Shown one piece after another: positions 23,415 to 36,102 of a stretch of DNA of 62,252 bases; the stretch's first letter is position 1, and every line of letters starts with the position of its first letter. The DNA comes from Desulfovibrionales bacterium. Lineage in GTDB: Bacteria > Desulfobacterota > Desulfovibrionia > Desulfovibrionales > Desulfovibrionaceae. The stretch lies in NCBI GenBank assembly GCA_030156255.1, contig JASGMV010000016.1, positions 1-62,252 on the forward strand, read 5' to 3'. The notes beneath the pieces are model-generated. The model saw nothing but the letters and a program-made list of their open reading frames with translations, was not told the DNA's origin and made no database searches. Position numbers and translations under genes: made by a program.

Positions 23415-25511
23415 ATGGCGCCATCGGGCGAAGCGCGAAACGTTCTCGTGACCGGCGATCTGGTCCGGGACACCAACCTGTTCCAATATTCCGTTCTGCC
23501 GTTGAGTTTCCATTATCCAAGCGGCAAGACGACCCATGAGACGCTTTTCGGCGGCGCATGGTTCCTGGAGGACATGATCCGGCGAATCAGCCCGGCGCCC
23601 GGCGTGTTCGGACCCCGCCGGCTCAAGACCACCCTGCGCGACGGCAGGGCGCATCAGGTGCACCACTCCTTTTACATCTGGTCCATGCACCAGGCCGGTC
23701 GGGCCAACGGAACCCAGCCGCCCGTGTGGCGCGTCAGCTCCTTTCTCGGATGCCAGACGGCCCCGAATCCGTGCGTCCCCAGGCTGCAGGAGGGAATCGC
23801 CCCGGAGGTTCTGGTTCTGGACGATTTGAGCCTTGGCTTCCGCGATGATCCGGTCTGCTGGCCTGCCTGCCTCGCCGGAAACGCGGAGCGTCCCGAGTCC
23901 GTGGTCTACAAGGCGACGCGCGGTTTTCAACACTCGCGGCTGTGGGAGACCCTGGCCGCCGCGAGCGACTCGCCGGATCGGCTGACGCTGGTGCTCTCCG
24001 CCCAGAGCCTGGAGGGGCTCGGCGTCATGATCCAGAAAAGCCTGTCCTGGGAGCGGTTGGCGGAGGACGTGATGGACGGGATGAAGCGCCGGCGGGACGT
24101 GTTTTCCCGCTGCAGGCGCATCCTCGCACACTTCGGGCCGGCCGGAGCGGTGTCCGTCTCCGGCGGAGATTCCCCGAAGTTGGAGTTTTTGGTCTACTAC
24201 CCCGAGCAATTGCCCGGACCGGGCCAGGCCCGGCGGCCGGGTTTGGCCTTCGGCTCCACCTCGTTGATCGCCGCGGCCGCGGCCGCTTTCGAGCGGGGCG
24301 ATGCGCAGTTCGGCCTGGAGGCCTTGGTCAAGCGAGGGCTTCAGGCCATGGGCGTCAACTGGCGCAACGGCGGCGGAGCGGACCCCGCACGCTGCCGGCC
24401 GCGCATGGTGCTGAGCTGGCTGCCCGAATGTTTCCGGCAGGGCTCGGCCGAGTCCGCGGAGGCGGAGAAAACCTATCGCGCCGTGGGCCAGGAGCAGGCC
24501 TTCCCGGAAGGGCTGGACCGTCCGGCCAATCTGCTTTCCGGCATATTGACCCGCGCCGGCGAGGATATTTTGAAGTTGGGCCGGGAAGTGGTGATCCATG
24601 GCGTGGCCCGCGCCCTCAAGGACGCGCCCAAGGCCGTGCACGGCCAGCATTTGACCGTGGACCGCGAGGAGGTGGAGCGCATCAACGCCGTGGGGCAGCT
24701 TTTCGAGCAGTACCAGATGAATTTGCGCGACGTGAAGCCGCTGTCCATCGCGGTCTTTGGCCAGCCCGGCTCCGGCAAGTCCTTCGCGGTCAAGGAGCTG
24801 GCCCGGGCCTGCCTGGACAGCCAGTACATCCTGGAGTTCAACCTGGCCCAACTGGAGCGGGAGAGCGATTTGGCCCTGGCCTTTCAGGAGGCCCGCGACG
24901 CCTCGGTGCAGGGACGCATTCCCTTGGTCTTCTGGGATGAGTTCGACAGCTCGGATTTACGCTGGCTGCGCCACTTCCTGGCGCCTATGCAGGACGGCGA
25001 GTTCTACGCCGATGGCAAGCGTTATCCGTTGGGGCGCTCCATTTTCGTGTTCGCCGGAGGCACCCGCCGCAGCTTCAAGGCCTTCGCCGAGCGCAGCGCG
25101 GAGGAGCAGGCCTGGTTTTCGGCGCGCAAGGGGCCGGATTTCGTATCCCGGCTGCGGGGATACCTCAACGTCAAAGGCCCCAACCCCCGGATGGGGAAAG
25201 ACGGCCTTTCGGAAGGCCTGTCCGCCGAGGTGGTCATCCGGCGGGCCATGCTGCTGCGCAGCCAGATTTTGCGACGGTTTCCCGGCCTGCAGGACCCCAA
25301 AGACAAAAGTATTCGCATCCAGGAAGGCGTGTTGCGCGCCTTTTTGATGGTCCCCCGCTACCTGCACGGAGCCCGCTCCCTGGCCGCGTTGGTCAAGATG
25401 AGCTCTCTGGCCGATGCGAGCTACTTCGACGCCTCGAAACTGCCGCCCAGAGACCTGCTCCGGCTACACGCGCCCGCCGACGACTTCCTGGACCTGGCTG
25501 CTTCCGGGTAA
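23415..25511 (+). CDS. AAA+ ATPase with an unusual N-terminal half (tentatively PfkB/ribokinase-like)
   Basis: A 698-residue protein. The C-terminal half is an AAA+ domain: Walker A GQPGSGKS at 449-456, Walker B VFWDEFDS (D508, E509), and sensor-like FVFAGGTRRSF. The N-terminal about 330 residues lack a signal peptide. They carry fragments that recall the ribokinase fold: NVLVTGDLVRDTNLF at the start, a FGGAWFLED glycine pair, VLVLDDLSLGFRDD, and LSWERLAEDVMDG. I could not identify the GxGD catalytic motif, so kinase activity is doubtful. The start lacks a clear Shine-Dalgarno. The neighbours (a cupin and a regulator facing it) do not reveal a function. Confidence 0.8.
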   Translation: MAPSGEARNVLVTGDLVRDTNLFQYSVLPLSFHYPSGKTTHETLFGGAWFLEDMIRRISPAPGVFGPRRLKTTLRDGRAHQVHHSFYIWSMHQAGRANGTQPPVWRVSSFLGCQTAPNPCVPRLQEGIAPEVLVLDDLSLGFRDDPVCWPACLAGNAERPESVVYKATRGFQHSRLWETLAAASDSPDRLTLVLSAQSLEGLGVMIQKSLSWERLAEDVMDGMKRRRDVFSRCRRILAHFGPAGAVSVSGGDSPKLEFLVYYPEQLPGPGQARRPGLAFGSTSLIAAAAAAFERGDAQFGLEALVKRGLQAMGVNWRNGGGADPARCRPRMVLSWLPECFRQGSAESAEAEKTYRAVGQEQAFPEGLDRPANLLSGILTRAGEDILKLGREVVIHGVARALKDAPKAVHGQHLTVDREEVERINAVGQLFEQYQMNLRDVKPLSIAVFGQPGSGKSFAVKELARACLDSQYILEFNLAQLERESDLALAFQEARDASVQGRIPLVFWDEFDSSDLRWLRHFLAPMQDGEFYADGKRYPLGRSIFVFAGGTRRSFKAFAERSAEEQAWFSARKGPDFVSRLRGYLNVKGPNPRMGKDGLSEGLSAEVVIRRAMLLRSQILRRFPGLQDPKDKSIRIQEGVLRAFLMVPRYLHGARSLAALVKMSSLADASYFDASKLPPRDLLRLHAPADDFLDLAASG

Positions 25512-25589: not shown

Positions 25590-27155
25590 TCAACAGCGTG
25601 AGCCGTTTTTTATCGTTTTGCATTTGCGTTTTTGTTCCGCGACCAGTTGTCCGAGTCCGTATTTTTTGATCCTGTAGCCCATCTGGCGCGCAGTGATGTG
25701 CAGCTCTTTTGCGGCGCGGTGCTGGATCCACTGATTGCGCTTCAGGGCGGCCACCACCTCGTTCTTCTCCATTTCCTTCAGGGAGGGCGAGCTTTCGGGC
25801 GGCAAGGACGCCTCGACCTCGCGCTCGCCCAATTGCAGCGCCTGGCGGACGATACGGTCATCAAGGGAGGCGCGGTCGGAAAGGATCGCCAGGCGATCCA
25901 CCAGCAGTTCGAGCTCCTGGACGTTGCCGGGCCAATAATGGCTTCGCAACACCTCCAGCGCCTTGGGCGTGAAAGCCAGTTTGCGGCCGTATTGGCGCAT
26001 GGCCCGATGCAGAAAATGGGCGGACAGGGGCTCGAGGTCCTCCATACGTAGCCGGAGCGGCGGGATTTCGAGGGGAAAAACGTTGAGGCGGTAATAGAGA
26101 TCCGGTCGGAAGCGGCCGAGGGTGGTCAACTCGCCGAGGTCCGCCGAATCCCCTGCGATGATGCGAACGTCGGCCTTGCGCAGCGTCGTGGAGCCCAACC
26201 TCTCGAATTCTCCGTACTGCATCAGCCTGAGGAGCCTGGCCTGCAGTCTGCTCGGCAGATGATGGGTTTCCTCAAGGTACAGCACTCCCCCTTCGGCCTG
26301 TTCTATGAAGCCGGCGCCGCCCAAAGGCTCGGGAAAGCTTCCTCCCTCGCGGCCGAAGATGTCGGCCAGCATGTGGTCTTCCTCCAAGTCTTCGAGGGTG
26401 GCTTTGACGAACGGGCCGTGGGATCGGTCCGAAATTTGGTGAATGATTCTGGCCAGCAGCTCCTTGCCGACTCCATGCTCCCCGAGAATCAATACGGGCG
26501 CCGTGGAGGGCGCCACGGTGGACGCCTGCCGCCGGAGCTCCTGCGCAATCCGGCTCTCGCCCACGAACTGCAGTTCGCCTTCCGCCTTGAGCACCTGGTA
26601 GCGCAGCGAGGCGTTCTGGCGTTTGAGCCGCTGTTCGCGTTGCACGGCCAGGCTGTGAAGACGCATCAACCGCGCCAGAAAAGCCGTGGTGTGCAAAACG
26701 ATTTCAAGATCGTGCGACAAAGGTCGAAAGTCGGGTAGAAAAGGCTGGATGTGCAGCAGGCCGAAGGACTCCTGGTCCAGCGTGATCGGCGCGCCTATCG
26801 CCGCAACCTGGGAGCGCATCCAAGGCATGGGTTCCTCAGGGTCCACGGGAACCGGGTGGAGCCGCCCTTTGAGCAAGACGTAGGGGGAAGCCAACTCCAC
26901 CAGTTCGTTCACGAGCCCGTCGGGAAGCCGGCCGAAGCGGCCGCTCTCCTCCGAAGCGATCCAGAGCGTCTTCCATCCTTGCTGCAAGGTCTCTTCGAAG
27001 AGAATACAGCAGGCGTTGGCGAGCCCGAAATGGTCCTGCAGCGAGCGCAGCAACTGTTCTACAGCCTGCTCCAGCTGAAGCGCCTCCGGCACGATGGAGC
27101 TGAAGATGAGGTGCAGGGAGGGGAGGCTGGTGACGGCTGCGGACATGACCTCCAC
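25590..27155 (-). CDS. NifA-like AAA+ transcriptional regulator lacking GAFTGA
   Basis: A 521-residue protein with the layout of a sigma-54 enhancer-binding protein. A GAF-like sensor fills residues 20-170, the AAA+ domain about 200-430, and a Fis-type helix-turn-helix at the end reads AAKELHITARQMGYRIKKYG, as in NifA. The AAA+ part is degenerate. Walker A is GEHGVGKE (225-232). The position of GAFTGA reads GSFPEP (272-277). Walker B reads LYLEETHHLP instead of LFLDEIGDLP. Without GAFTGA it should not remodel the sigma-54 holoenzyme, so it may act as a repressor or on sigma-70, as TyrR does. It converges on the AAA+ ATPase gene. Confidence 0.85.
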   Translation of the reverse strand: MEVMSAAVTSLPSLHLIFSSIVPEALQLEQAVEQLLRSLQDHFGLANACCILFEETLQQGWKTLWIASEESGRFGRLPDGLVNELVELASPYVLLKGRLHPVPVDPEEPMPWMRSQVAAIGAPITLDQESFGLLHIQPFLPDFRPLSHDLEIVLHTTAFLARLMRLHSLAVQREQRLKRQNASLRYQVLKAEGELQFVGESRIAQELRRQASTVAPSTAPVLILGEHGVGKELLARIIHQISDRSHGPFVKATLEDLEEDHMLADIFGREGGSFPEPLGGAGFIEQAEGGVLYLEETHHLPSRLQARLLRLMQYGEFERLGSTTLRKADVRIIAGDSADLGELTTLGRFRPDLYYRLNVFPLEIPPLRLRMEDLEPLSAHFLHRAMRQYGRKLAFTPKALEVLRSHYWPGNVQELELLVDRLAILSDRASLDDRIVRQALQLGEREVEASLPPESSPSLKEMEKNEVVAALKRNQWIQHRAAKELHITARQMGYRIKKYGLGQLVAEQKRKCKTIKNGSRC

Positions 27156-27903: not shown

Positions 27904-29730
27904 TCAGCTTGCGTGGGCCGGGGAAAGCGATGCGCGGGGAGGTTTGGCGTCGCCCTGGGGCGAGCCGCACGTTAAGCGAATTTTTCCAAGGGGATGGAAG
28001 GTCGTGCTCTGCTGCAGCCCCAGCTCCAGCGAGCCGCCTTCGGACAGGGTGAACGGCTCGCCGAATCGCAATGGCTCCTTGTTGAGCGTCAGGGACAGTT
28101 TATCCGCCGAGCCGTTGCTCCAGGCGTCCGTGATGCGCCAGGTCCCCGGAGCGAGCTTTTGGACGTCTCCGTTGGTGAAGGGGAGCAGCAGGTCGCGCCC
28201 GTCCGGGCCTTCGAACCGCAGCGCCTTGACCGTCCGCGGGCTGACGCGGATGTTGAAATCCGCCGGCGCGGCGCCTTTCGTCTCCCGGGCCACCCGGCAT
28301 ATCCATTCGTCTTTGATTTTTCCCGGTTCGAGATAGCGCCTGATGAAGTTGTCCGGGTCGAGAATGATCTCCATTCCGAGGTCCTGGCCGTCGTTGCTGT
28401 AGGGTTGGGAGACGTAGCCTTTGAAGTTGAGAATTTCGTCGGGCGCTCCGCCGAGCACGCCTTCGAGCACGAATTGGTCGCCCTCCACGGCATCGAGGGT
28501 GCGCCCTGCGGGAACCAGGCGGAGCTGGCCGTTGAGCCAACAGGCGAACATGGCGCCGCTTCCGGGAAGCTTGGACCACGAGCCTTTCCAGCGGACTCTG
28601 GCCCTGGACACTGTCGAACCGTCGGAGCGCACCTCCAGGGAGTTGAAAGGCGTCAAGGCCATTCGCGGAGCCGTGAGCAGGTTGAAATCGGGCCGGTCCG
28701 AGGCGTAGACGGCCAGGCTGGGCGCAAAGGCGTTGTCCGAGACGCTGGACTGCAAGGCCAGGATCGAATTCGGCGCCAATTCGATGGTTTGTCCGTTGGA
28801 GAGCGCGCGGCCGTTGAGTTCGATGCGCGGGGCGCGCCGGGTGTAGTGGTCCACCTCCTGTTCGGTGACCTCGGGAGGGGAGATGTCCACGCCGAATCGG
28901 GCCAGCAGCAGCGCCGTGGCCGCAAGCTGGCGTTGCACCTTCCAACCGAGCTGCTGGATATTCTTGCTGACTTCGACGGCCATGGCCGGGATGCCCACGT
29001 TTTCCAGGACATAGCAGGTCAGGGATTTGCGCATCTCGGGGTAGAGCGTGTTGCTTTCGAAGGTGCGGGTGTTGAAAAGCTGGAACCGGTATTGGGCCGG
29101 AACAACCGTGGGGTTGAGTTCGGCGAGAACCTTGGTCGCGGCTTCCGCCAGGTGAATGCGGTGATCGAAGACCGTGGTGTCGATGATGATGGACTGGCCG
29201 TAGCGGCGGGGGTTGCGCAGGTTGTCCACGTAGGTGGGATGGTAGAATCCGGAGCCTTCGTGAAGATGGATGAAGGCCGCGGCCTGGGATACCAGGGAGC
29301 GTATGGCCAGAGCAAGCCGGTCCTCGTAGAACTGGTTGTATTCCTTGTCAAAACGGCGGTTGAGGTCCACGTTGACCTGCCGCTGGCAGATGTTGATGGA
29401 CGGGACGTTGGCCCGGGGGACCAGGATGAGCCGGCCTTTGCGGACCCGCGCTTTGCTGAGCAGCTGCGCCGTGATAAAGCCGGACTTCTCGTCTCCCTGG
29501 ATGCCCCCCTGCACCATGATGGTCGGCCCGGGCTCGTCGCCCTCGATGAACCATGCCGTGAGGGGGTATTGGGTGCCTTGGAAGAACGTGTACTTCTTCA
29601 CTCGTTGCGCGTGGACCGAAGGCGGAGCGAGAGCCCCCGCCAAGAGCATCAGAACCGCCAGCAGACATGCGAGGAGGCGACTATGGGCGGATTTCAGCCA
29701 GCGAGTGCAATTCACCAAGAATCTCTTCAC
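27904..29730 (-). CDS. M99-family (Csd4-like) zinc carboxypeptidase
   Basis: A 608-residue exported protein. Its signal peptide ends near PPSVHAQ. The catalytic domain resembles Csd4 of Helicobacter pylori (peptidase family M99), a D,L-carboxypeptidase that trims peptidoglycan tripeptides to dipeptides and sets helical shape. The unusual Gln-x-x-Glu zinc motif replaces His-x-x-Glu: GGIQGDEKSGF with Q78 and E81. The third ligand region is FIHLHEGSGFY (H155/H157). Two beta-rich regions follow. It is the last gene of the operon and its start overlaps the previous gene by 50 bases. The length and extra C-terminal domains match M99 proteins of Desulfovibrio relatives as I recall them. Confidence 0.85.
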   Translation of the reverse strand: MKRFLVNCTRWLKSAHSRLLACLLAVLMLLAGALAPPSVHAQRVKKYTFFQGTQYPLTAWFIEGDEPGPTIMVQGGIQGDEKSGFITAQLLSKARVRKGRLILVPRANVPSINICQRQVNVDLNRRFDKEYNQFYEDRLALAIRSLVSQAAAFIHLHEGSGFYHPTYVDNLRNPRRYGQSIIIDTTVFDHRIHLAEAATKVLAELNPTVVPAQYRFQLFNTRTFESNTLYPEMRKSLTCYVLENVGIPAMAVEVSKNIQQLGWKVQRQLAATALLLARFGVDISPPEVTEQEVDHYTRRAPRIELNGRALSNGQTIELAPNSILALQSSVSDNAFAPSLAVYASDRPDFNLLTAPRMALTPFNSLEVRSDGSTVSRARVRWKGSWSKLPGSGAMFACWLNGQLRLVPAGRTLDAVEGDQFVLEGVLGGAPDEILNFKGYVSQPYSNDGQDLGMEIILDPDNFIRRYLEPGKIKDEWICRVARETKGAAPADFNIRVSPRTVKALRFEGPDGRDLLLPFTNGDVQKLAPGTWRITDAWSNGSADKLSLTLNKEPLRFGEPFTLSEGGSLELGLQQSTTFHPLGKIRLTCGSPQGDAKPPRASLSPAHAS

Positions 29731-30409
29731 CGTTGGAGGACTGGAGAATGAGGCGCAGGCCGAAGACGGCCTCGGGCTTTACGCCCGACGGCAATTCGGC
29801 ACGAGTGCGGACCTGCTTGTAGCGCTGGATGAGGTAGGACATGTCGTTGACGTCGGTGGGCAGGCTGACGACCGAGCCGTTGTCCATGACCAGTTGGATC
29901 TCCGCCTGGCCGGAAATGGATTCCTCGTCAGGCAGCAGATTGTTCAGATTGAAGGAAATGTCGAGGTCGCGCCCCTCCAACTGCGCTTGAAAGTCTTCGA
30001 CCGACGCCTTCTTCAAGTCGACAGGCTGAAAAAGTTTGGAGAGGCTGATGGGGGGCGCTTCCGCCTGGCCGGGCGTTTGGGCGACGCCGGAGGAGTTTTG
30101 GGCAAGAGCGCCGAGCAGAGGGTGGATTCCTTCGCGGTCGGATGCTGCGAGGATGCTGTGAACTCTTTCCAGGCGCTGCAACTGGCCGGCGGCGTCGGCC
30201 AGCTGGCTTTGGGCCTCGGCGTTGGCTTTGGCCAGCCGGGTGTTGGCCTGCAAGAAGCGGACGACCAGGAAGGTCGCCAGAATGGCGTAGGCCACGAGAA
30301 GAATTTGGACATAGACGAACATCTTGAGCCAGAATGGACTCATCCGGAAGCGCTTGACGCGGGTGTCGTCCCGCATGAAGAGCACGCTGTATTTCGAGTC
30401 GTTGCTCAT
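29681..30409 (-). CDS. single-pass membrane protein between the csd-like genes
   Basis: A 242-residue protein with a short cytoplasmic N-terminus, one transmembrane helix (about residues 28-52, VYVQILLVAYAILATFLVV), then a coiled coil (LQANTRLAKANAEAQSQL, AAGQLQRLERVHSIL) and a periplasmic region of about 140 residues. I do not recognise a family. Its start overlaps the upstream L,D-transpeptidase by four bases (ATGA) and its end overlaps the peptidase gene by 50. By position it could anchor or organise the two wall hydrolases, as Csd5/Csd7-type membrane proteins do in Helicobacter. That role is an inference without sequence similarity. Confidence 0.75.
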   Translation of the reverse strand: MSNDSKYSVLFMRDDTRVKRFRMSPFWLKMFVYVQILLVAYAILATFLVVRFLQANTRLAKANAEAQSQLADAAGQLQRLERVHSILAASDREGIHPLLGALAQNSSGVAQTPGQAEAPPISLSKLFQPVDLKKASVEDFQAQLEGRDLDISFNLNNLLPDEESISGQAEIQLVMDNGSVVSLPTDVNDMSYLIQRYKQVRTRAELPSGVKPEAVFGLRLILQSSNGEEILGELHSLAEIRP

Positions 30410-31692
30410 GAAAGCGGCTCCCAGGATTCGGAAACGATGGCCCAGCTCGCCCCGCGGGGTTCGAGGACCATGGTTTTCACGCCTTTGTCCGAATATCCGT
30501 TCTGGGCTGCGTAGGTCTGGAGAAAGCGCACCTCAAGCCCTTTATCATTGAGCTCCACGGTGGGGCGTTCAATGAAAACGTCCGCCGGCGGATTTTTCCC
30601 CCAGACATGTTCCTTGTGTTCGGCGATGGCTTCGAGCCCTTGGCGGTTGTCCTGGCGAGCGCTGGGTTCGTAGAAGGCGAGGTATGCGGAAAGGTCTGCA
30701 GATTTCCACGCCTGCCGCCATTTTTCCAGCAGCTCGCCGACTTCCTGGCGCTTGGCCTCCATGTAGTCGGGCAGCAGATCGGCGTTTCCGGGTGCAAATT
30801 CGCGGCCCACGATGCGCCACTGCCCGTCGGCGTTCTTTTGCCAGTACAGGCGTTTGCGGCCGCTGGAGATGAGGGCCGGGGAGCGGTAGAGCTGGTCGAA
30901 ACAGGTGACCCAATAGTCCGGGCCGGCCAGCACGCCGACATGGCCGACGAAGACCTGAAGCCAGGGTTGGGAGGCGAAGATGCGTTCTTTGCGTTGGCGA
31001 AAAGCCTCGAAAGGCGTTCCTTGGGCCTTGGTGAACGCTTCCTGCTCGTAGTGGCCAAAGAAGCGTTCGCTGCGCAACTCCCAATCCCGGGCCCATTGCC
31101 GCAGCTCCCGATGGAGCTCCTTTTCAACGGGGATATCCCTGGTAGGCGCTCCGTTCACGCTCAGATGCTTGGCGATGACCACGGGCGTGCCCGGCGCCAG
31201 GGTGGTTTGAATGCTTTTGAGGTCGGGGAGCGAGAGCGCCACGCAACCGCGGGTTTCTCTGGGCGTGAAGGCCTTGCCGCGGCCGTGGACCCAGATGCCC
31301 CCCCCGGTTTTGCCTCGAATCCTGTCCACGGGATTGGGAAAATTCAAGGGAAAGGCCAAATCCCCGTACAGATCGTAATCAAGCCCGCCCTCGATTTTGC
31401 CTTCAATGAAATAGACGCCTTCCGGGGTCTTGAGGTCGCCTTCACGCGCCTTGTCGCCGGTCGCCTGCCCCGTGGTGCAGGGATATTCGGCGGTTACGGA
31501 CAAGGGGCTTTTGCGGGTCAGGAGAAAAAATTTTTGGGAGTCCTTGTCGATGGCCAACATCAGCGGAGGACTGTAGGGACTGTCGGCGAGTTTGGTCTCC
31601 CAACCCGCCAGAATGGGCTGAGGCAACGCCGAAAAGGCGAAAAGGAGGGTGATTACCGTGAAGAATCGATTCGCACTGGGCAGAGCCTTCAT
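30406..31692 (-). CDS. YkuD-domain protein with NTF2-like C-terminus (Csd6-like)
   Basis: A 428-residue exported protein with a signal peptide ending near LPQPILA. The YkuD catalytic domain lies at about 45-165, with His136 in WVHGRGKAF and the nucleophile Cys150 in RGCVALS. The C-terminal 130 residues look like an NTF2 fold (LYWQKNADGQWRIVGREF, WRQAWKSADLSAYLAFY, VWGKNPPADVFIERPT). This two-part architecture matches Csd6 of H. pylori, an L,D-carboxypeptidase needed for helical shape. It may alternatively crosslink peptidoglycan as a classical L,D-transpeptidase. It heads a three-gene operon, csd6-like, membrane protein, csd4-like. Confidence 0.87.
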   Translation of the reverse strand: MKALPSANRFFTVITLLFAFSALPQPILAGWETKLADSPYSPPLMLAIDKDSQKFFLLTRKSPLSVTAEYPCTTGQATGDKAREGDLKTPEGVYFIEGKIEGGLDYDLYGDLAFPLNFPNPVDRIRGKTGGGIWVHGRGKAFTPRETRGCVALSLPDLKSIQTTLAPGTPVVIAKHLSVNGAPTRDIPVEKELHRELRQWARDWELRSERFFGHYEQEAFTKAQGTPFEAFRQRKERIFASQPWLQVFVGHVGVLAGPDYWVTCFDQLYRSPALISSGRKRLYWQKNADGQWRIVGREFAPGNADLLPDYMEAKRQEVGELLEKWRQAWKSADLSAYLAFYEPSARQDNRQGLEAIAEHKEHVWGKNPPADVFIERPTVELNDKGLEVRFLQTYAAQNGYSDKGVKTMVLEPRGASWAIVSESWEPLS

Positions 31693-31776: not shown

Positions 31777-31806
31777 AATATCGAGAGAAAGACGAAATCA
31801 TGTCAA
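31777..31806 (-). promoter_or_regulatory. candidate sigma-70 promoter for the csd-like operon
   Basis: Read on the minus strand, TTGACA (31806-31801) is followed after 18 bases by GATATT (31782-31777), a perfect -35 with a 4-of-6 -10. It lies about 85 bases upstream of the Csd6-like start at 31692, in the gap after pyrE. Confidence 0.45.
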
Positions 31807-31811
31807 ACTCT

Positions 31812-32372
31812 TCAACGTCCCCCCGCCGCGAGCAGGCTGCTGCGCGTGAAGATGGAGTGGAGCGGATATCCCAATTCTGCGAGATTCTCGCTTCCGCCTT
31901 CCTCTCTGTCTAAAACGCAGAGCACTTTTGCGACAACAAGTCCCGCGTCCTCAACACGCTGGATCGAGGTCGCCAACGTGCCGCCGGTGGTGACGACGTC
32001 CTCAAGGAGCGCCACCCGATCCCCGGGGCTGAAGTTTTTCATGCCCTCGATGAACTGGTTGGAGCCGTGCCCTTTGGCTTTTTTCCGGATGATGAAGCCC
32101 GGAAGGGGTGGTTTTCTTATGTGCGAAACCACTGTCACGGCGCTCACGAGCGGATCGGCGCCCAGCGTCATGCCGCCCACCCCCTTCACGTCGGCGTCCT
32201 GCAGCATATCGCAGAAGATGTTGCCGATGAGCCATGCGCCCTCGGGGTGCAGGGCGGTCTGCTTCCCGTCGAAATAATAGGAGCTCTTGCGGCCGGAGGT
32301 CAGGGTGAACTCCCCTTCCATGTACGACAACTCCAACAGCAGGGCGGCCAGGGGTTTGGCGAGTTCATGCAT
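31812..32372 (-). CDS. pyrE: orotate phosphoribosyltransferase
   Basis: A 186-residue enzyme that makes orotidine 5'-phosphate from orotate and PRPP in pyrimidine synthesis. The PRPP-binding motif is VALLEDVVTTGGTL, and SGRKSSYYFDGK near residue 26 is the N-terminal orotate-site segment. IIRKKAKGHG matches the mobile loop region. The length is typical of the shorter bacterial and archaeal type. Its ATG overlaps the end of purB by eight bases, so the purine and pyrimidine genes are coupled. Confidence 0.94.
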   Translation of the reverse strand: MHELAKPLAALLLELSYMEGEFTLTSGRKSSYYFDGKQTALHPEGAWLIGNIFCDMLQDADVKGVGGMTLGADPLVSAVTVVSHIRKPPLPGFIIRKKAKGHGSNQFIEGMKNFSPGDRVALLEDVVTTGGTLATSIQRVEDAGLVVAKVLCVLDREEGGSENLAELGYPLHSIFTRSSLLAAGGR

Positions 32373-33675
32373 CGCTCGACTCCGGGGGAAGCACGCGGTT
32401 CAGGATTTCCTGCTCGTTGGCCAGGTAGGACGTGACGTCGAAGATGGCGTCGAGGCGCTCGGAGCCGAGAATGCCGACGATGGCTTCGTCGGCGCGCACG
32501 GCGTCGGGGAAGAGCGTTTTGTCTCCCCAACAGCGCATGGCCACCTTCTGGACCATTTCATAGGCCTTCTGCCGGGGCTGGCCTGCGTCGAGCAGGGCGT
32601 TCAGCACCCGCTGGGAGAAGAACAAACCATAGGAGCCCATAAGGTTGCGGGCCATGTTTTCCGGAATGACGCGCAGCCGGTCAAGCAGACCGGTCATGCG
32701 GCGCAGCATGTAGTGGGCCAGCGTGGTGGAGTCGGGCATGATGACGCGCTCCACCGAAGAATGGCTGATGTCCCGTTCGTGCCACAGGGCCATGTTCTCC
32801 ATGGCGGCCAGGGCGTTGGTCCGCAGAAGGCGGGACAGGCCGCACAGGTTCTCGGCCGAAATGGGGTTCTTCTTGTGGGGCATGGCCGAGGAGCCTTTTT
32901 GTCCTTTGGCGAAGCCTTCCTCCGCCTCCAGGACTTCCGTGCGCTGCAGATGCCGGAGCTCCACGCCGAGCCGTTCGATTCCCCCGCCCAGCACGCCGAG
33001 GGCCGTGAAAAATTCGGCGTAGCGGTCGCGTTGGACGATCTGGGTGGAGATGGGGTCGGGCTTCAGCCCCAGATGCTCGCAGGCCAGCCGCTCCAATTCG
33101 GGACTGAGGAAGGCGTAGGTGCCGACGGCGCCGGAGATTTTGCCCACGCGGACGTTCTCCACCGCGCGCTCGATGCGCTGCTTGTGGCGGGCGAACTCGG
33201 CGTAGAATCCGGCCATTTTGAGGCCGAAGCTCGTGGGTTCGGCGTGAACGCCGTGGGTGCGCCCCATGACCAACTGGCCTTGATGCTTCCTGGCCAGTTT
33301 GGCCAAAGAAGCCAGAAGCCCGTCCAGAGCCTCCAGGATCAGCTTGCCGGAGCGGGTCAACCGCAAGGCGTTGGCGGTGTCCACGATGTCCGAGGACGTG
33401 CAGCCCACGTGGATGAAACGGGCGTTTTCGCCCACGCTTTCCTCCACGGAGGTGAGAAAGGCGATGACGTCGTGCCTGGTGGTCTCTTCGATCTCCAGGA
33501 TGCGCTCCAGGTTGATCCTTGCCTCGGCTTTGATGGCCTCCACGGCTTCCGCAGGGACTTTTCCCAGTTTGCTCCAGGCCTCGCATACGGCGATCTCCAC
33601 TTCGAGCCATGCTTCGAAGTGCGCCTGCTGGGACCAGAGAGCGGCCATTTCCGGCGTAGAATAGCGTTCGATCAT
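32365..33675 (-). CDS. purB: adenylosuccinate lyase
   Basis: A 436-residue member of the fumarase/aspartase superfamily that cleaves SAICAR and adenylosuccinate in purine synthesis. The family signature SSAMPHKKNPI is intact and carries the catalytic flexible loop. The TSSDIVDTANALRL and MGRTHGVHAEPTSFG regions hold the remaining active-site residues. The start MIERYSTPEMAALWSQQA is the normal PurB N-terminus. pyrE follows with an eight-base overlap. The terminator of fmdB lies 42 bases upstream, so purB probably has its own promoter in the short gap. Confidence 0.95.
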   Translation of the reverse strand: MIERYSTPEMAALWSQQAHFEAWLEVEIAVCEAWSKLGKVPAEAVEAIKAEARINLERILEIEETTRHDVIAFLTSVEESVGENARFIHVGCTSSDIVDTANALRLTRSGKLILEALDGLLASLAKLARKHQGQLVMGRTHGVHAEPTSFGLKMAGFYAEFARHKQRIERAVENVRVGKISGAVGTYAFLSPELERLACEHLGLKPDPISTQIVQRDRYAEFFTALGVLGGGIERLGVELRHLQRTEVLEAEEGFAKGQKGSSAMPHKKNPISAENLCGLSRLLRTNALAAMENMALWHERDISHSSVERVIMPDSTTLAHYMLRRMTGLLDRLRVIPENMARNLMGSYGLFFSQRVLNALLDAGQPRQKAYEMVQKVAMRCWGDKTLFPDAVRADEAIVGILGSERLDAIFDVTSYLANEQEILNRVLPPESSDA

Positions 33676-34744: not shown

Positions 34745-35251
34745 ATGAAAGAAGGCAACCTGGAAGCGGCTGTAGCCGACGTGGTCGAAGTTTTACAATT
34801 TGAGCAATGGATGCGGTTTTATTTCCTGGTCGAGGAAGGCGAGAAATTGCGCCTGGAGGTCCCCGAGAGCATGGCGGCCCGCGTCGAGGAGAAAAGTTCC
34901 CATCTTGCCGGTTTGTTGCAGCAGATGAATCATGGGCTGATCGACCCCCAGAAGTCGCAGGAGGCTGTTTGCGGTTTTGTTGGAGAGAATATCGAGGGTG
35001 TAAAGCACAGCCCGTATCTCGTGCCCGCCGTTTTCGACTCCAAGCAATTCAAACTGGAGATGTATCTTTTCAACCTATGGCTCAAGGCCTACGAAGAAGG
35101 TTTCGACACGGAACAGGACAAGGGCTTCGACGAATGGCGCGAACTCTACGCCGCATGGCGCGCGACCGATCAGGTCAAGCAATATGTGCGGGAGTTGGAG
35201 TCGGCGCCGGCGCCGGCCGTGGGAGACCCCTGCTCGCGGACTGTCCAATAG
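34745..35251 (+). CDS. hypothetical protein
   Basis: A 168-residue soluble, mostly helical, acidic protein. Trp- and Tyr-rich segments (FEQWMRFYFLVEEGEKL, FNLWLKAYEEGFDTEQ, WRELYAAWRATDQ) resemble a small helical bundle. There is no signal peptide and no family I recognise. A good GGGAGGAAAGC precedes the ATG. It ends 14 bases before the phosphodiester glycosidase gene, so the two are probably co-transcribed. An unusually long, structured leader precedes it. Confidence 0.8.
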   Translation: MKEGNLEAAVADVVEVLQFEQWMRFYFLVEEGEKLRLEVPESMAARVEEKSSHLAGLLQQMNHGLIDPQKSQEAVCGFVGENIEGVKHSPYLVPAVFDSKQFKLEMYLFNLWLKAYEEGFDTEQDKGFDEWRELYAAWRATDQVKQYVRELESAPAPAVGDPCSRTVQ

Positions 35252-35265
35252 CGCGGGCTTCTGCG

Positions 35266-36102
35266 ATGAGCGAGGAGGGATCGCCAGCCCGCGGGAAAGC
35301 GCCGCTTGCGTTGCGCCGGCCGCCCTGGTTGGGCGTTTTGTTTTTGGCGCTCTGGGTGCTGGCCGCCCCCGCCGAAGCGGAGGAGATCGCATGGCGGGAG
35401 CTGGAGCCCGGGTTCCAGATGGCCGCTCTGGCCAACGCCACGGACATCGTCGCGGCGCGGATCGACCCGACCCGTTTCAAGCTGGAGTTGTTCTCCGTCA
35501 AGGAGCAGGGCGGGGAGCCGCGGACCATTGAAGAGTGGGCGCGCGCGTTCGGTTTGTCCGCGGCGATCAACGCAGGCATGTTCCTGAAGGATCTGCGCAC
35601 CAGCGCGGGATATATGAGATCCCCCCGCGTGGTGAACAATCCCGGCTTCAATCCCCGCTACGGAGCCTTCTTCGTCTTCGGCCCCAAAGTCGAAGGCCTG
35701 CCCGAGGTCCAGTTCGTGGACCGCTACCATCACGACTGGCGCAAGCTGATCGAGCAATACGACGTGGTGGTTCAGAACTTTCGGATGATCGGCGCCGGAG
35801 GGGAAAATACGTGGCGCCCGGACGCCAACGCCCACAGTATCGCCTGTGTGGGCGTTGACGCCGAGGGATGGGTCTTGTTCATCCACAGCCGGACGCCGCG
35901 CACGGTTCACGATTTTGTCGAGCTGTTGCGGGCTCAGCCGTGGCGCGTCAAAGGACTGATGTACGTGGAGGGCGGACCGCCGGCCAGCCTGTACGTCAAG
36001 GCCGGCGACGTGGACGCCGTGTATCTGGGGGAGGGCGACCTGTTGGGCGCCGGGCTCATGCCCCGGAAGCTGCCCAACGTGCTGGGCGTACGCCGAAGAT
36101 AG
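35266..36102 (+). CDS. phosphodiester glycosidase (NAGPA domain) family protein
   Basis: A 278-residue predicted exported protein with a hydrophobic N-terminal signal (WLGVLFLALWVLAAPAEA). The rest is a NAGPA domain (PF09992): AAINAGMFLKDLRTSAGYM, YVEGGPPASLYV, and the ACVGVDAEGWVLFIHSR core. Family members cleave phosphodiester-linked sugars or serve as exopolysaccharide-modifying enzymes; the natural substrate here is unknown. The ATG at 35266 follows the stop of the upstream gene closely. Periplasmic location is inferred from the signal. Confidence 0.88.
   Translation: MSEEGSPARGKAPLALRRPPWLGVLFLALWVLAAPAEAEEIAWRELEPGFQMAALANATDIVAARIDPTRFKLELFSVKEQGGEPRTIEEWARAFGLSAAINAGMFLKDLRTSAGYMRSPRVVNNPGFNPRYGAFFVFGPKVEGLPEVQFVDRYHHDWRKLIEQYDVVVQNFRMIGAGGENTWRPDANAHSIACVGVDAEGWVLFIHSRTPRTVHDFVELLRAQPWRVKGLMYVEGGPPASLYVKAGDVDAVYLGEGDLLGAGLMPRKLPNVLGVRRR

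What the first reader, a model, noticed from the sequence alone, without database searches (positions are those of the whole stretch)
27904..31692. Csd6-like/membrane/Csd4-like operon as a candidate cell-curvature module in a vibrioid sulfate reducer
A YkuD-NTF2 protein (Csd6 architecture), a coiled-coil membrane protein and an M99 peptidase with the rare Gln-x-x-Glu zinc motif are translationally coupled. In Helicobacter pylori, Csd6 and Csd4 trim peptide stems one residue at a time to make the helical shape. Finding the two enzymes fused into one operon with a membrane partner suggests a compact shape-control machine in Desulfovibrio-like cells, whose curvature is otherwise poorly explained.
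Basis: partly seen in the sequence, partly recalled or inferred. Interest (0 to 1): 0.6.

Follow-up and report, generated by a model that had tools for sequence, protein, structure and literature searches.

The report
Cell-wall trimming operon for curved shape
Three neighbouring genes appear to make two enzymes that trim the bacterial cell wall plus a membrane anchor that may tie them to an internal scaffold, a likely and testable cause of the comma shape of Desulfovibrio relatives.

Summary
In detail: window 27904-31692 (minus strand) holds an overlapping operon of a YkuD protein, a one-pass membrane protein (MID) and an M99 peptidase, with catalytic residues intact.

Four refinements. (1) The YkuD protein is nearest Bd1075, the curvature enzyme of Bdellovibrio, not Csd6. 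It has two NTF2 domains and keeps Bd1075's Trp303 (33 of 34 MID-linked relatives). (2) The core is the YkuD-MID pair (33 of 37 MID loci); M99 joins the operon mainly in a divergent M99 subfamily. (3) MID's best-conserved part is its cytoplasmic tail, which resembles the tail of LmdC-type M23 peptidases; in LmdC that tail binds bactofilin. MID and bactofilin co-occur more tightly than any other pair tested in 247 genomes (193 both, 45 neither; phi 0.89, flagellin control 0.55). (4) All 13 genomes seen of a genus read as straight-rod Desulfomicrobium lack MID, M99 and bactofilin.

Best reading: a bactofilin-anchored LD-/DL-carboxypeptidase module that sets curvature, a new variant of a known kind. 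Activity, tail binding and shape effect are inferred. No dsrA was found in the window's genome, so "sulfate reducer" is unsupported.

The parts
30406..31692 (-). YkuD-type LD-carboxypeptidase-like protein: N-terminal signal-like segment (by eye), YkuD domain (residues about 47-173, H136/C150), tandem Csd6_C/NTF2 domains (193-295 and about 312-428)
   Evidence: Pfam YkuD and Cds6_C; best PDB sequence match 7o21 (Bd1075), 121.7 bits, against 84.4 for 4xzz (Csd6); W424 = Bd1075 W303, Y394 = Bd1075 Y274
29681..30409 (-). MID: bitopic membrane protein; cytoplasmic tail residues 1-24, membrane span plus coiled coil 25-93, linker, periplasmic beta domain 135-236
   Evidence: no Pfam or NCBIfam match; conserved with YkuD upstream; tail is the best-conserved part
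30338..30394 (-). LmdC-like cytoplasmic tail of MID (residues 6-24, KYSVLFMRDDTRVKRFRMS)
   Evidence: mean pairwise column identity 0.63 against 0.34 for the beta domain and 0.26 for the span; tail comparison with M23 peptidases
27904..29730 (-). M99 DL-carboxypeptidase-like protein (divergent Csd4 relative): signal-like segment (by eye), peptidase domain 63-282, beta-rich C-terminal domains
   Evidence: PF17033 105.8 bits; Q78/E81/H157; top five Foldseek matches are all H. pylori Csd4
29681..29730 (-). 50-nt overlap of the MID end and the M99 start (if the GTG start is right)
   Evidence: many relatives have a V-K/R at the same place, but starts were not determined
31777..31806 (-). sigma-70-like promoter match TTGACA-18-GATATT between pyrE and the operon
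   Evidence: 10 of 12 positions; consensus match only
31812..32372 (-). pyrE, conserved upstream neighbour
32365..33675 (-). purB, conserved upstream neighbour

Best explanation
The operon is a peptidoglycan stem-trimming module that sets cell curvature and is tied to the bactofilin cytoskeleton. The exported YkuD protein acts as an LD-carboxypeptidase (tetra- to tripeptide), and its NTF2 pair, with the Bd1075-type tryptophan pocket, places it on one face of the wall. The exported M99 protein then acts as a DL-carboxypeptidase (tri- to dipeptide). MID is the bridge: its conserved cytoplasmic tail docks on bactofilin, as the tail of LmdC does, and its coil and periplasmic beta domain hold or locate the YkuD enzyme (and M99 where encoded) at the bactofilin track. 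Local trimming weakens one side, so that the cell grows bent. Shown: genes, residues, synteny, tail conservation, co-occurrence with bactofilin, absence from the genus read as Desulfomicrobium. Supported but not proven: likeness of the tail to M23/LmdC tails. Inferred: activities, tail-bactofilin binding, MID-enzyme contact, effect on shape.
For: Catalytic residues are intact in both enzymes. The nearest solved relative is Bd1075, an LD-CPase that bends Bdellovibrio through NTF2 targeting (PMC8938487, passages); its targeting residues are kept: W303 in 33 of 34 MID-linked YkuD proteins (F in L047) and Y274 as Y or F in 34 of 34. YkuD lies directly upstream of MID in 33 of 37 MID loci. MID-bactofilin: both 193, MID only 2, bactofilin only 7, neither 45 of 247; phi 0.89, the highest of 10 pairs; flagellin control 0.55-0.56 with MID and bactofilin. 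An HMM of 28 M23 tails that contains no MID ranks MIDs as the 15 next hits of 4,109 ORFs after two M23s (19 MIDs against 1 other at E<=1; best E 2e-4). Permuting the pre-membrane columns gives at most 6 MIDs in 60 runs, and the membrane span alone 0. In LmdC this tail binds bactofilin (PMC10945521, passages and one section). M23s of the L004 type co-occur with bactofilin in 52 of 60 genomes, with 1 bactofilin-only exception. The 13 g45 genomes seen, read as Desulfomicrobium, all lack MID, M99 and bactofilin; Desulfomicrobium cells lack the curved shape of Desulfovibrio (PMC8069399, passages).
Against: No direct evidence of activity, binding or phenotype. The tail likeness is short: a 25-residue HMM without the span recovers only 2 MIDs against 14 others at E<=10; the MID-tail HMM finds M23s only at E 0.81 (L245), 25 (L003) and 35 (L004); 1 of 200 permutations beat the full-length hhalign score. 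The M23-tail HMM does not reach the M23s encoded beside bactofilin in L211 and L245 even at E<=50 (only L003 and L004 counted as M23 there), so their likeness is by eye. The hairpin is modelled with low confidence (pLDDT about 60). Co-occurrence counts are not phylogenetically independent; 23 of 47 bactofilin-lacking genomes also lack flagellin, and Csd6_C correlates with flagellin at 0.73. MID stands without YkuD in two f4 loci and as a lone paralogue in the window's own genome. 20 MID genomes lack M99 and 5 M99 genomes lack MID.
Confidence: 0.6

Rival explanations
1. The same enzymes trim stems and affect shape, but MID does not bind bactofilin. Its tail is a membrane-insertion or general anchoring signal, and the co-occurrence with bactofilin only reflects loss of both in lineages that have become straight or simplified.
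For: The hairpin-only HMM is weak and the M23-tail HMM misses the bactofilin-adjacent M23s of other bacteria; the model is unsure of the hairpin; many losses lie in one family and coincide with flagellin loss.
Against: The tail is the best-conserved part of MID, with D14 and R22 invariant in the 33 aligned sequences, more than an anchor needs. MID-bactofilin association exceeds MID-flagellin (0.89 against 0.55). Column order matters.
Confidence: 0.22
2. The operon is general wall maintenance: stem trimming during growth, recycling or envelope stress, or attachment of proteins by a transpeptidase, without a special role in curvature.
For: YkuD proteins include transpeptidases and amidases (weak NF040599 match, 24.5 bits against a cut-off of 365); the operon sits behind housekeeping genes purB-pyrE.
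Against: The four best PDB sequence matches are all shape enzymes (7o21 Bd1075, 4xzz Csd6, 6xj6 and 6xj7 Pgp2); Bd1075's targeting residues are kept; MID, M99 and bactofilin are absent from the genus read as straight-rod Desulfomicrobium.
Confidence: 0.13
3. MID acts on the periplasmic side only, as a cofactor or inhibitor of the YkuD enzyme, with localisation set by the NTF2 domains alone.
For: The Bd1075 gene is monocistronic, and its NTF2 domain targets the protein (PMC8938487, passages). MID's beta domain is conserved.
Against: It does not explain why the cytoplasmic tail is the most conserved part or the bactofilin association.
Confidence: 0.05

Closest known systems
Bd1075 of Bdellovibrio bacteriovorus (LD-carboxypeptidase, cell curvature; 7O21)
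   Same: YkuD domain plus NTF2; catalytic His/Cys; pocket residues Y274 (Y/F) and W303 at aligned positions; an enzyme that shapes a vibrioid cell
   Different: Two NTF2 domains instead of one; encoded with MID (bd1075 is described as monocistronic, PMC8938487); activity untested here
Csd6 (H. pylori) and Pgp2 (C. jejuni)
   Same: YkuD plus Csd6_C/NTF2 architecture
   Different: Lower scores than Bd1075 (84.4 and 76.4 against 121.7 bits); one NTF2 that by the Bd1075 paper ends before the W303 position
Csd4 (H. pylori) / Pgp1 (C. jejuni), M99 DL-carboxypeptidases
   Same: M99 domain, Gln-x-x-Glu and His ligands, beta-rich C-terminal part; top five structural matches are Csd4
   Different: A divergent subfamily (108 bits against mostly 250-300 for the classic M99 of other class members), 608 aa, in an operon with YkuD. 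Pgp1 itself was not compared
LmdC (M23 peptidase of Hyphomonas and Rhodospirillum that binds bactofilin)
   Same: Short cytoplasmic tail (pattern compared with M23s of the same class, not with LmdC itself), one membrane span, coiled coil
   Different: MID has no M23 domain; it has a beta domain of no known family and travels with YkuD instead of being an enzyme itself
Csd5 (H. pylori, bitopic adaptor that binds CcmA bactofilin and wall)
   Same: Works-like analogue: non-enzymatic bitopic protein with a short cytoplasmic N-terminus and a periplasmic domain
   Different: No SH3 domain found in MID; beta domain and long coil instead; no sequence comparison with Csd5 was made

Membership tests
Csd6/Bd1075-type LD-carboxypeptidases | YkuD domain with catalytic His and Cys | tested here: met
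   PF03734 61.1 bits; H136 and C150 in all 33 MID-linked sequences that cover them
Csd6/Bd1075-type LD-carboxypeptidases | C-terminal NTF2-like (Csd6_C) domain | tested here: met
   PF24125 105 bits, two stretches; two separate matches in the same ORF. Tandem arrangement differs from the single domain of the known members
Csd6/Bd1075-type LD-carboxypeptidases | Bd1075 targeting residues Y274 and W303 | tested here: met
   window Y394 and W424; Y or F in 34 of 34 and W in 33 of 34 MID-linked YkuD proteins, F in L047
Csd6/Bd1075-type LD-carboxypeptidases | Cleaves tetra- to tripeptide stems | not testable with these tools
   needs purified protein and muropeptides
M99 / Csd4 | M99 profile above the curated cut-off | tested here: met
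   105.8 bits against cut-off 27
M99 / Csd4 | Gln-x-x-Glu plus His zinc ligands | tested here: met
   Q78, E81, H157
M99 / Csd4 | Csd4 fold | tested here: met
   AF2 model pLDDT 82.9; five Csd4 chains top Foldseek, E 1.4e-24 to 4.4e-23
M99 / Csd4 | DL-carboxypeptidase activity on tripeptides | not testable with these tools
   needs assay
LmdC (for MID) | M23 peptidase domain | tested here: not met
   no Pfam or NCBIfam match. MID is not filed as an LmdC
LmdC (for MID) | cytoplasmic bactofilin-binding beta-hairpin tail before one membrane span | tested here: inconclusive
   tail likeness to class M23s supported; hairpin-only HMM weak, MID-tail HMM weak; model confidence low; binding untested
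LmdC (for MID) | periplasmic coiled coil | tested here: met
   continuous helix 25-93 in the model; no coiled-coil predictor was run
Csd5 (for MID) | periplasmic SH3 domain | tested here: not met
   no Pfam match. Works-like comparison only
Csd5 (for MID) | binds bactofilin by the cytoplasmic N-terminus | not testable with these tools
   needs binding assay; literature for Csd5 from passages of PMC9448923

The most novel reading that the evidence does not exclude
Desulfovibrionales cells are curved by a previously undescribed class of morphogenetic adaptor: a non-enzymatic, LmdC-tailed bitopic protein that plugs a Bd1075-type carboxypeptidase (and in many genera a Csd4-type one) into the same bactofilin track that also recruits an LmdC-type M23 endopeptidase. 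The bactofilin tail would then be an exchangeable docking tag shared by unrelated wall enzymes and adaptors.
Probability: 0.45. Interest if true: 0.78.

Novelty: new variant of a known kind. Interest (0 to 1): 0.62.

Why it matters
No described mechanism for the curvature of Desulfovibrio and its relatives turned up in the listings of the open-licence papers searched here. If right, the module links the two known routes to bent cells (asymmetric stem trimming in Helicobacter, Campylobacter and Bdellovibrio, and bactofilin-guided enzymes in Rhodospirillum) through one small adaptor. It predicts that a short cytoplasmic tail is a docking tag for bactofilin that can be searched for in other bacteria. 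By alignment it also suggests that the Bd1075 targeting tryptophan is not confined to Bdellovibrio.

Tried and rejected
Fusion of enzymes: rejected, three separate ORFs. M99 as obligate part: rejected, no YkuD or MID was found in the stretches around 20 of 20 classic-type M99 genes (stretches of 3.5-9.5 kb, some cut by contig ends, one-sequence phmmer), and 20 of 195 MID genomes have no M99. MID as an LmdC peptidase: rejected, no M23 domain. MID as a known periplasmic fold: Foldseek gives only weak, mixed matches (best E 5.7e-4 to an AlkC chain, TM 0.28), so no family is claimed. Bactofilin on plasmids gave 6 records. One of two Leptospira regions has an M23 beside bactofilin whose N-terminus shows no clear tail by eye; Acetoanaerobium (L211) has an M23 beside bactofilin with a similar tail by eye, which the M23-tail HMM does not reach. 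Only 1 of 30 phylum-wide bactofilin loci had an M23 within about 1.5 kb by motif search. Literature listings for Desulfovibrio curvature with these enzymes or bactofilin showed no such study (25 of 30 papers listed; 1; 9). PMC12713370 (passages) treats curvature-dependent protein placement in a vibrioid relative, not the cause of curvature.

Counts and drops: the presence lists were typed from the tables, and their sizes match the tool tallies. Three weak bactofilin genomes (G008, G055, G243) were dropped, leaving 200, although the tool counts 201 over the cut-off. Nine weak Csd6_C genomes of f2/g45 were dropped, leaving 201, although the tool counts 203 over the cut-off; so '0 of 13' for Csd6_C in g45 depends on that drop, and I do not use it. 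The 13 g45 genomes were collected from the flagellin table, so their having flagellin is by construction and is no evidence. Loci for synteny were picked by me for genus diversity. Alignment A2 left out L047 and L052, A6 holds 33 sequences of 46 MID ORFs found in loci (start not set by my script, duplicate, or left out), and 3 of 30 M23 loci (L258, L259, L262) were missed by the motif used.
Full report
Observation. Three minus-strand ORFs fill 27904-31692. The YkuD protein (30406-31692) and the membrane protein, here called MID (29681-30409), overlap by ATGA; MID and the M99 protein (27904-29730) overlap by 50 nt if the GTG start is right. Pfam gives YkuD (61.1 bits) and Cds6_C (105 bits in two stretches) for the first, nothing for MID, and Peptidase_M99 (105.8 bits, cut-off 27) for the third. 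NCBIfam gives no family for MID and nothing over a cut-off for the two enzymes. A promoter-like match lies between pyrE and ykuD (a consensus match only).

M99 protein. Its nearest solved relatives are the Csd4 entries (80 bits). The zinc ligands align as Q78-x-x-E81 and H157, and the Gln46His variant of Csd4 (4wcm, so titled) shows His at the Q78 position. These residues are invariant in the 15 aligned sequences, window included. The AF2 model (pLDDT 82.9) has five Csd4 chains as its top Foldseek matches (E 1.4e-24 to 4.4e-23).

YkuD protein. Its best PDB match is 7o21 (121.7 bits), then 4xzz (84.4) and Pgp2 (76.4). 7O21 is Bd1075, 4XZZ is Csd6 and 6XJ6 is Pgp2 by the Bd1075 paper (PMC8938487, passages only). 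[quoted passage not shown] Numbering by the catalytic Cys (chain 151 = C156) puts Bd1075 W303 on window residue W424 and Y274 on Y394. In 34 MID-linked YkuD proteins, window included, the first position is W in 33 (F in L047) and the second Y or F in 34; the two YkuD proteins of an f4 genome that are not beside MID show no W there. The window protein has two Csd6_C domains in one ORF, where the three known enzymes have one. That its first residues are a signal peptide is my reading of the sequence; no predictor was run.

Synteny. In class-wide searches (247 genomes) M99 is in 180, MID (profile A1) in 195, Csd6_C in 210 and bactofilin in 203. Listed M99 scores fall mostly into two groups, about 250-300 bits and about 108-131 bits, with two between (153 and 189) and some fragmentary or unlisted ones; the window (108) is in the lower group. 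I fetched 20 loci of each group, chosen for genus diversity. In the lower group 18 of 20 show YkuD-MID-M99 in order, all 18 with purB and 16 with pyrE upstream; the two others (L048, L050) hold a more distant M99 alone. In the upper group 0 of 20 have YkuD or MID in the stretch (stretches of 3.5-9.5 kb, some cut by contig ends). Of 20 further loci (19 at MID hits, one at a Csd6_C hit), YkuD lies directly upstream of MID in 15; one MID is at a contig end (L085), two MIDs of family f4 stand behind purB-pyrE without YkuD (L083, L097), and one is a lone paralogue in the window's genome (L078). Together YkuD precedes MID in 33 of 37 MID loci. Only one of those 15 also has M99 (L095). So the core is YkuD-MID.

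MID. In 33 aligned sequences (of 46 MID ORFs found in the fetched loci) the cytoplasmic tail (residues 6-24) has mean pairwise column identity 0.63, against 0.26 for the span, 0.35 for the coil and 0.34 for the beta domain; the best 17-residue stretch in the protein starts at residue 6. D14 and R22 are invariant in these 33. The AF2 model (pLDDT 85.0) shows a helix 25-93 and a beta domain 135-236; the tail shows a two-strand bridge at residues 8-9 and 21-22 with pLDDT about 60. Foldseek finds only weak, mixed matches.

Likeness to LmdC tails. LmdC is a bitopic M23 peptidase whose N-terminal cytoplasmic beta-hairpin binds bactofilin (Hyphomonas, peptide 1-38, about 15 uM; changed residues abolish recruitment in Rhodospirillum) (PMC10945521: passages, one section). 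No LmdC sequence itself was at hand. Two of the five M23 proteins of the window's genome have a tail of the same pattern (L003, L004). Two M23s encoded beside bactofilin elsewhere (L211 Acetoanaerobium, L245) look alike by eye. Profile comparison of MID and M23 tails gives E 5.5e-5, probability 66. With the hairpin columns alone the score 18.4 exceeds all 200 column permutations (maximum 16.6); with the span included 1 of 200 permutations is higher. An HMM of 28 M23 tails searched against 4,109 ORFs ranks MIDs as the next 15 hits after the two M23s L004 and L003, 19 MIDs against 1 other at E<=1, best 2e-4. Permuting the pre-membrane columns gives at most 6 MIDs (mean 1.3) in 60 runs, and the span alone 0. 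Against: a 25-residue HMM without the span finds only 2 MIDs against 14 others at E<=10; the reverse search from MID tails gives the bactofilin-adjacent M23 L245 only E 0.81 and L003/L004 E 25-35; and the M23-tail HMM does not reach L211 or L245 at E<=50. I take the likeness as probable, not proven.

Co-occurrence. After dropping three weak bactofilin genomes, MID and bactofilin occur together in 193 of 247 genomes, MID alone in 2, bactofilin alone in 7, neither in 45. Phi is 0.89, the highest of ten pairs; MID-M99 0.73, MID-Csd6_C 0.80, M99-bactofilin 0.75, Csd6_C-bactofilin 0.80. The flagellin control gives 0.55 with MID, 0.56 with bactofilin, 0.54 with M99, but 0.73 with Csd6_C (lists). The genomes are related, so no probability is claimed, but both states occur within genera g3, g12 and g15 (tables). 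Of 47 genomes without bactofilin 23 also lack flagellin and 24 have it, so part of the pattern may be loss of curvature together with swimming. In the first 60 genomes M23s of the L004 type (E<1e-60) co-occur with bactofilin in 52, with one bactofilin-only genome, G034, whose closest M23 lies directly beside its bactofilin.

Shape. I therefore read g45 as Desulfomicrobium. The 13 g45 genomes that the tables show all lack MID, M99 and bactofilin; they were collected from the flagellin table, so their having flagellin is by construction, and nine of them have a weak Csd6_C match (E 9e-4 to 1.8e-5). Desulfomicrobium cells are short, straight or ellipsoidal rods without the curved shape of Desulfovibrio (PMC8069399, passages; D. 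baculatum rod-shaped, PMC3035215, passages). Among 23 named genomes tested directly MID is in 8: three of three Humidesulfovibrio, two of three Desulfonatronospira, one Desulfohalobiaceae, one Desulfovibrionaceae and one Desulfovibrio record. It is absent from 15: Desulfomicrobium (1), three Desulfovibrionales MAGs, one Desulfonatronospira MAG of 1.3 Mb, two Desulfohalobiaceae, two Desulfovibrio MAGs, Desulfothermus okinawensis, and five genomes labelled outside the order. That Humidesulfovibrio is vibrioid and Desulfonatronospira spirilloid is recalled, not looked up.

Comparison. H. pylori Csd5 is a single-pass protein whose short cytoplasmic N-terminus binds the bactofilin CcmA and whose SH3 domain binds the wall (PMC9448923, passages). 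MID would work like Csd5 but is not a Csd5 by domain content, and it has an LmdC-like tail without being a peptidase. In Campylobacter, Pgp2 makes tripeptides for Pgp1 (PMC10151779, passages), the order of action proposed here for the YkuD and M99 proteins.

Not in print, as far as searched: the listings (25 of 30 shown; 1; 9) show no study of Desulfovibrio curvature with these enzymes or with bactofilin. Only open-licence PMC papers were searched.

Organism. No dsrA match was found in the window's genome (99.28% complete, 106 contigs), while the other 23 genomes searched each have at least one match, 21 of them over the cut-off. The assembly may have a gap there, but 'sulfate reducer' is not supported.

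Noticed in passing
window genome G000 (whole): No dsrA match although the 23 other class members searched have one: either an assembly gap or a Desulfovibrio relative that does not reduce sulfate.
   Followed up: partly
L078:5105-5971 (G000:C6:18104-18955): A second MID paralogue in the same genome, alone near the contig end, with the same kind of tail (IRDD in place of MRDD) but no YkuD beside it.
   Followed up: partly
L003 and L004 (G000:C54 and C105): Two M23 peptidases with LmdC-like tails in the window's genome; the bactofilin gene itself sits behind a RodA-like protein, with no M23 seen beside it in the 3.3-kb locus (the RodA label is by eye).
   Followed up: yes
L096:2125-4854 (G045:C12): In family f4 two YkuD/NTF2 genes lie in tandem away from MID, while MID stays behind purB-pyrE; neither shows the Bd1075-type tryptophan.
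   Followed up: partly
L048, L050 (G237, G224): M99 genes of a further type: E 8e-57 and 1e-46 to the window protein, without YkuD or MID beside them.
   Followed up: no
L047:1562-3328: The YkuD protein of this locus has a long low-complexity insert between its two NTF2 domains and F in place of the conserved tryptophan.
   Followed up: no
window 23415-25511: 698-aa protein with a weak AAA match (PF00004, 23.8 bits) and no NCBIfam family, next to a sigma-54 activator at 25590-27155.
   Followed up: no
window 35250-36102: The C-terminal part of a plus-strand ORF looks like a phosphodiester glycosidase-type protein (recalled resemblance, not tested).
   Followed up: no
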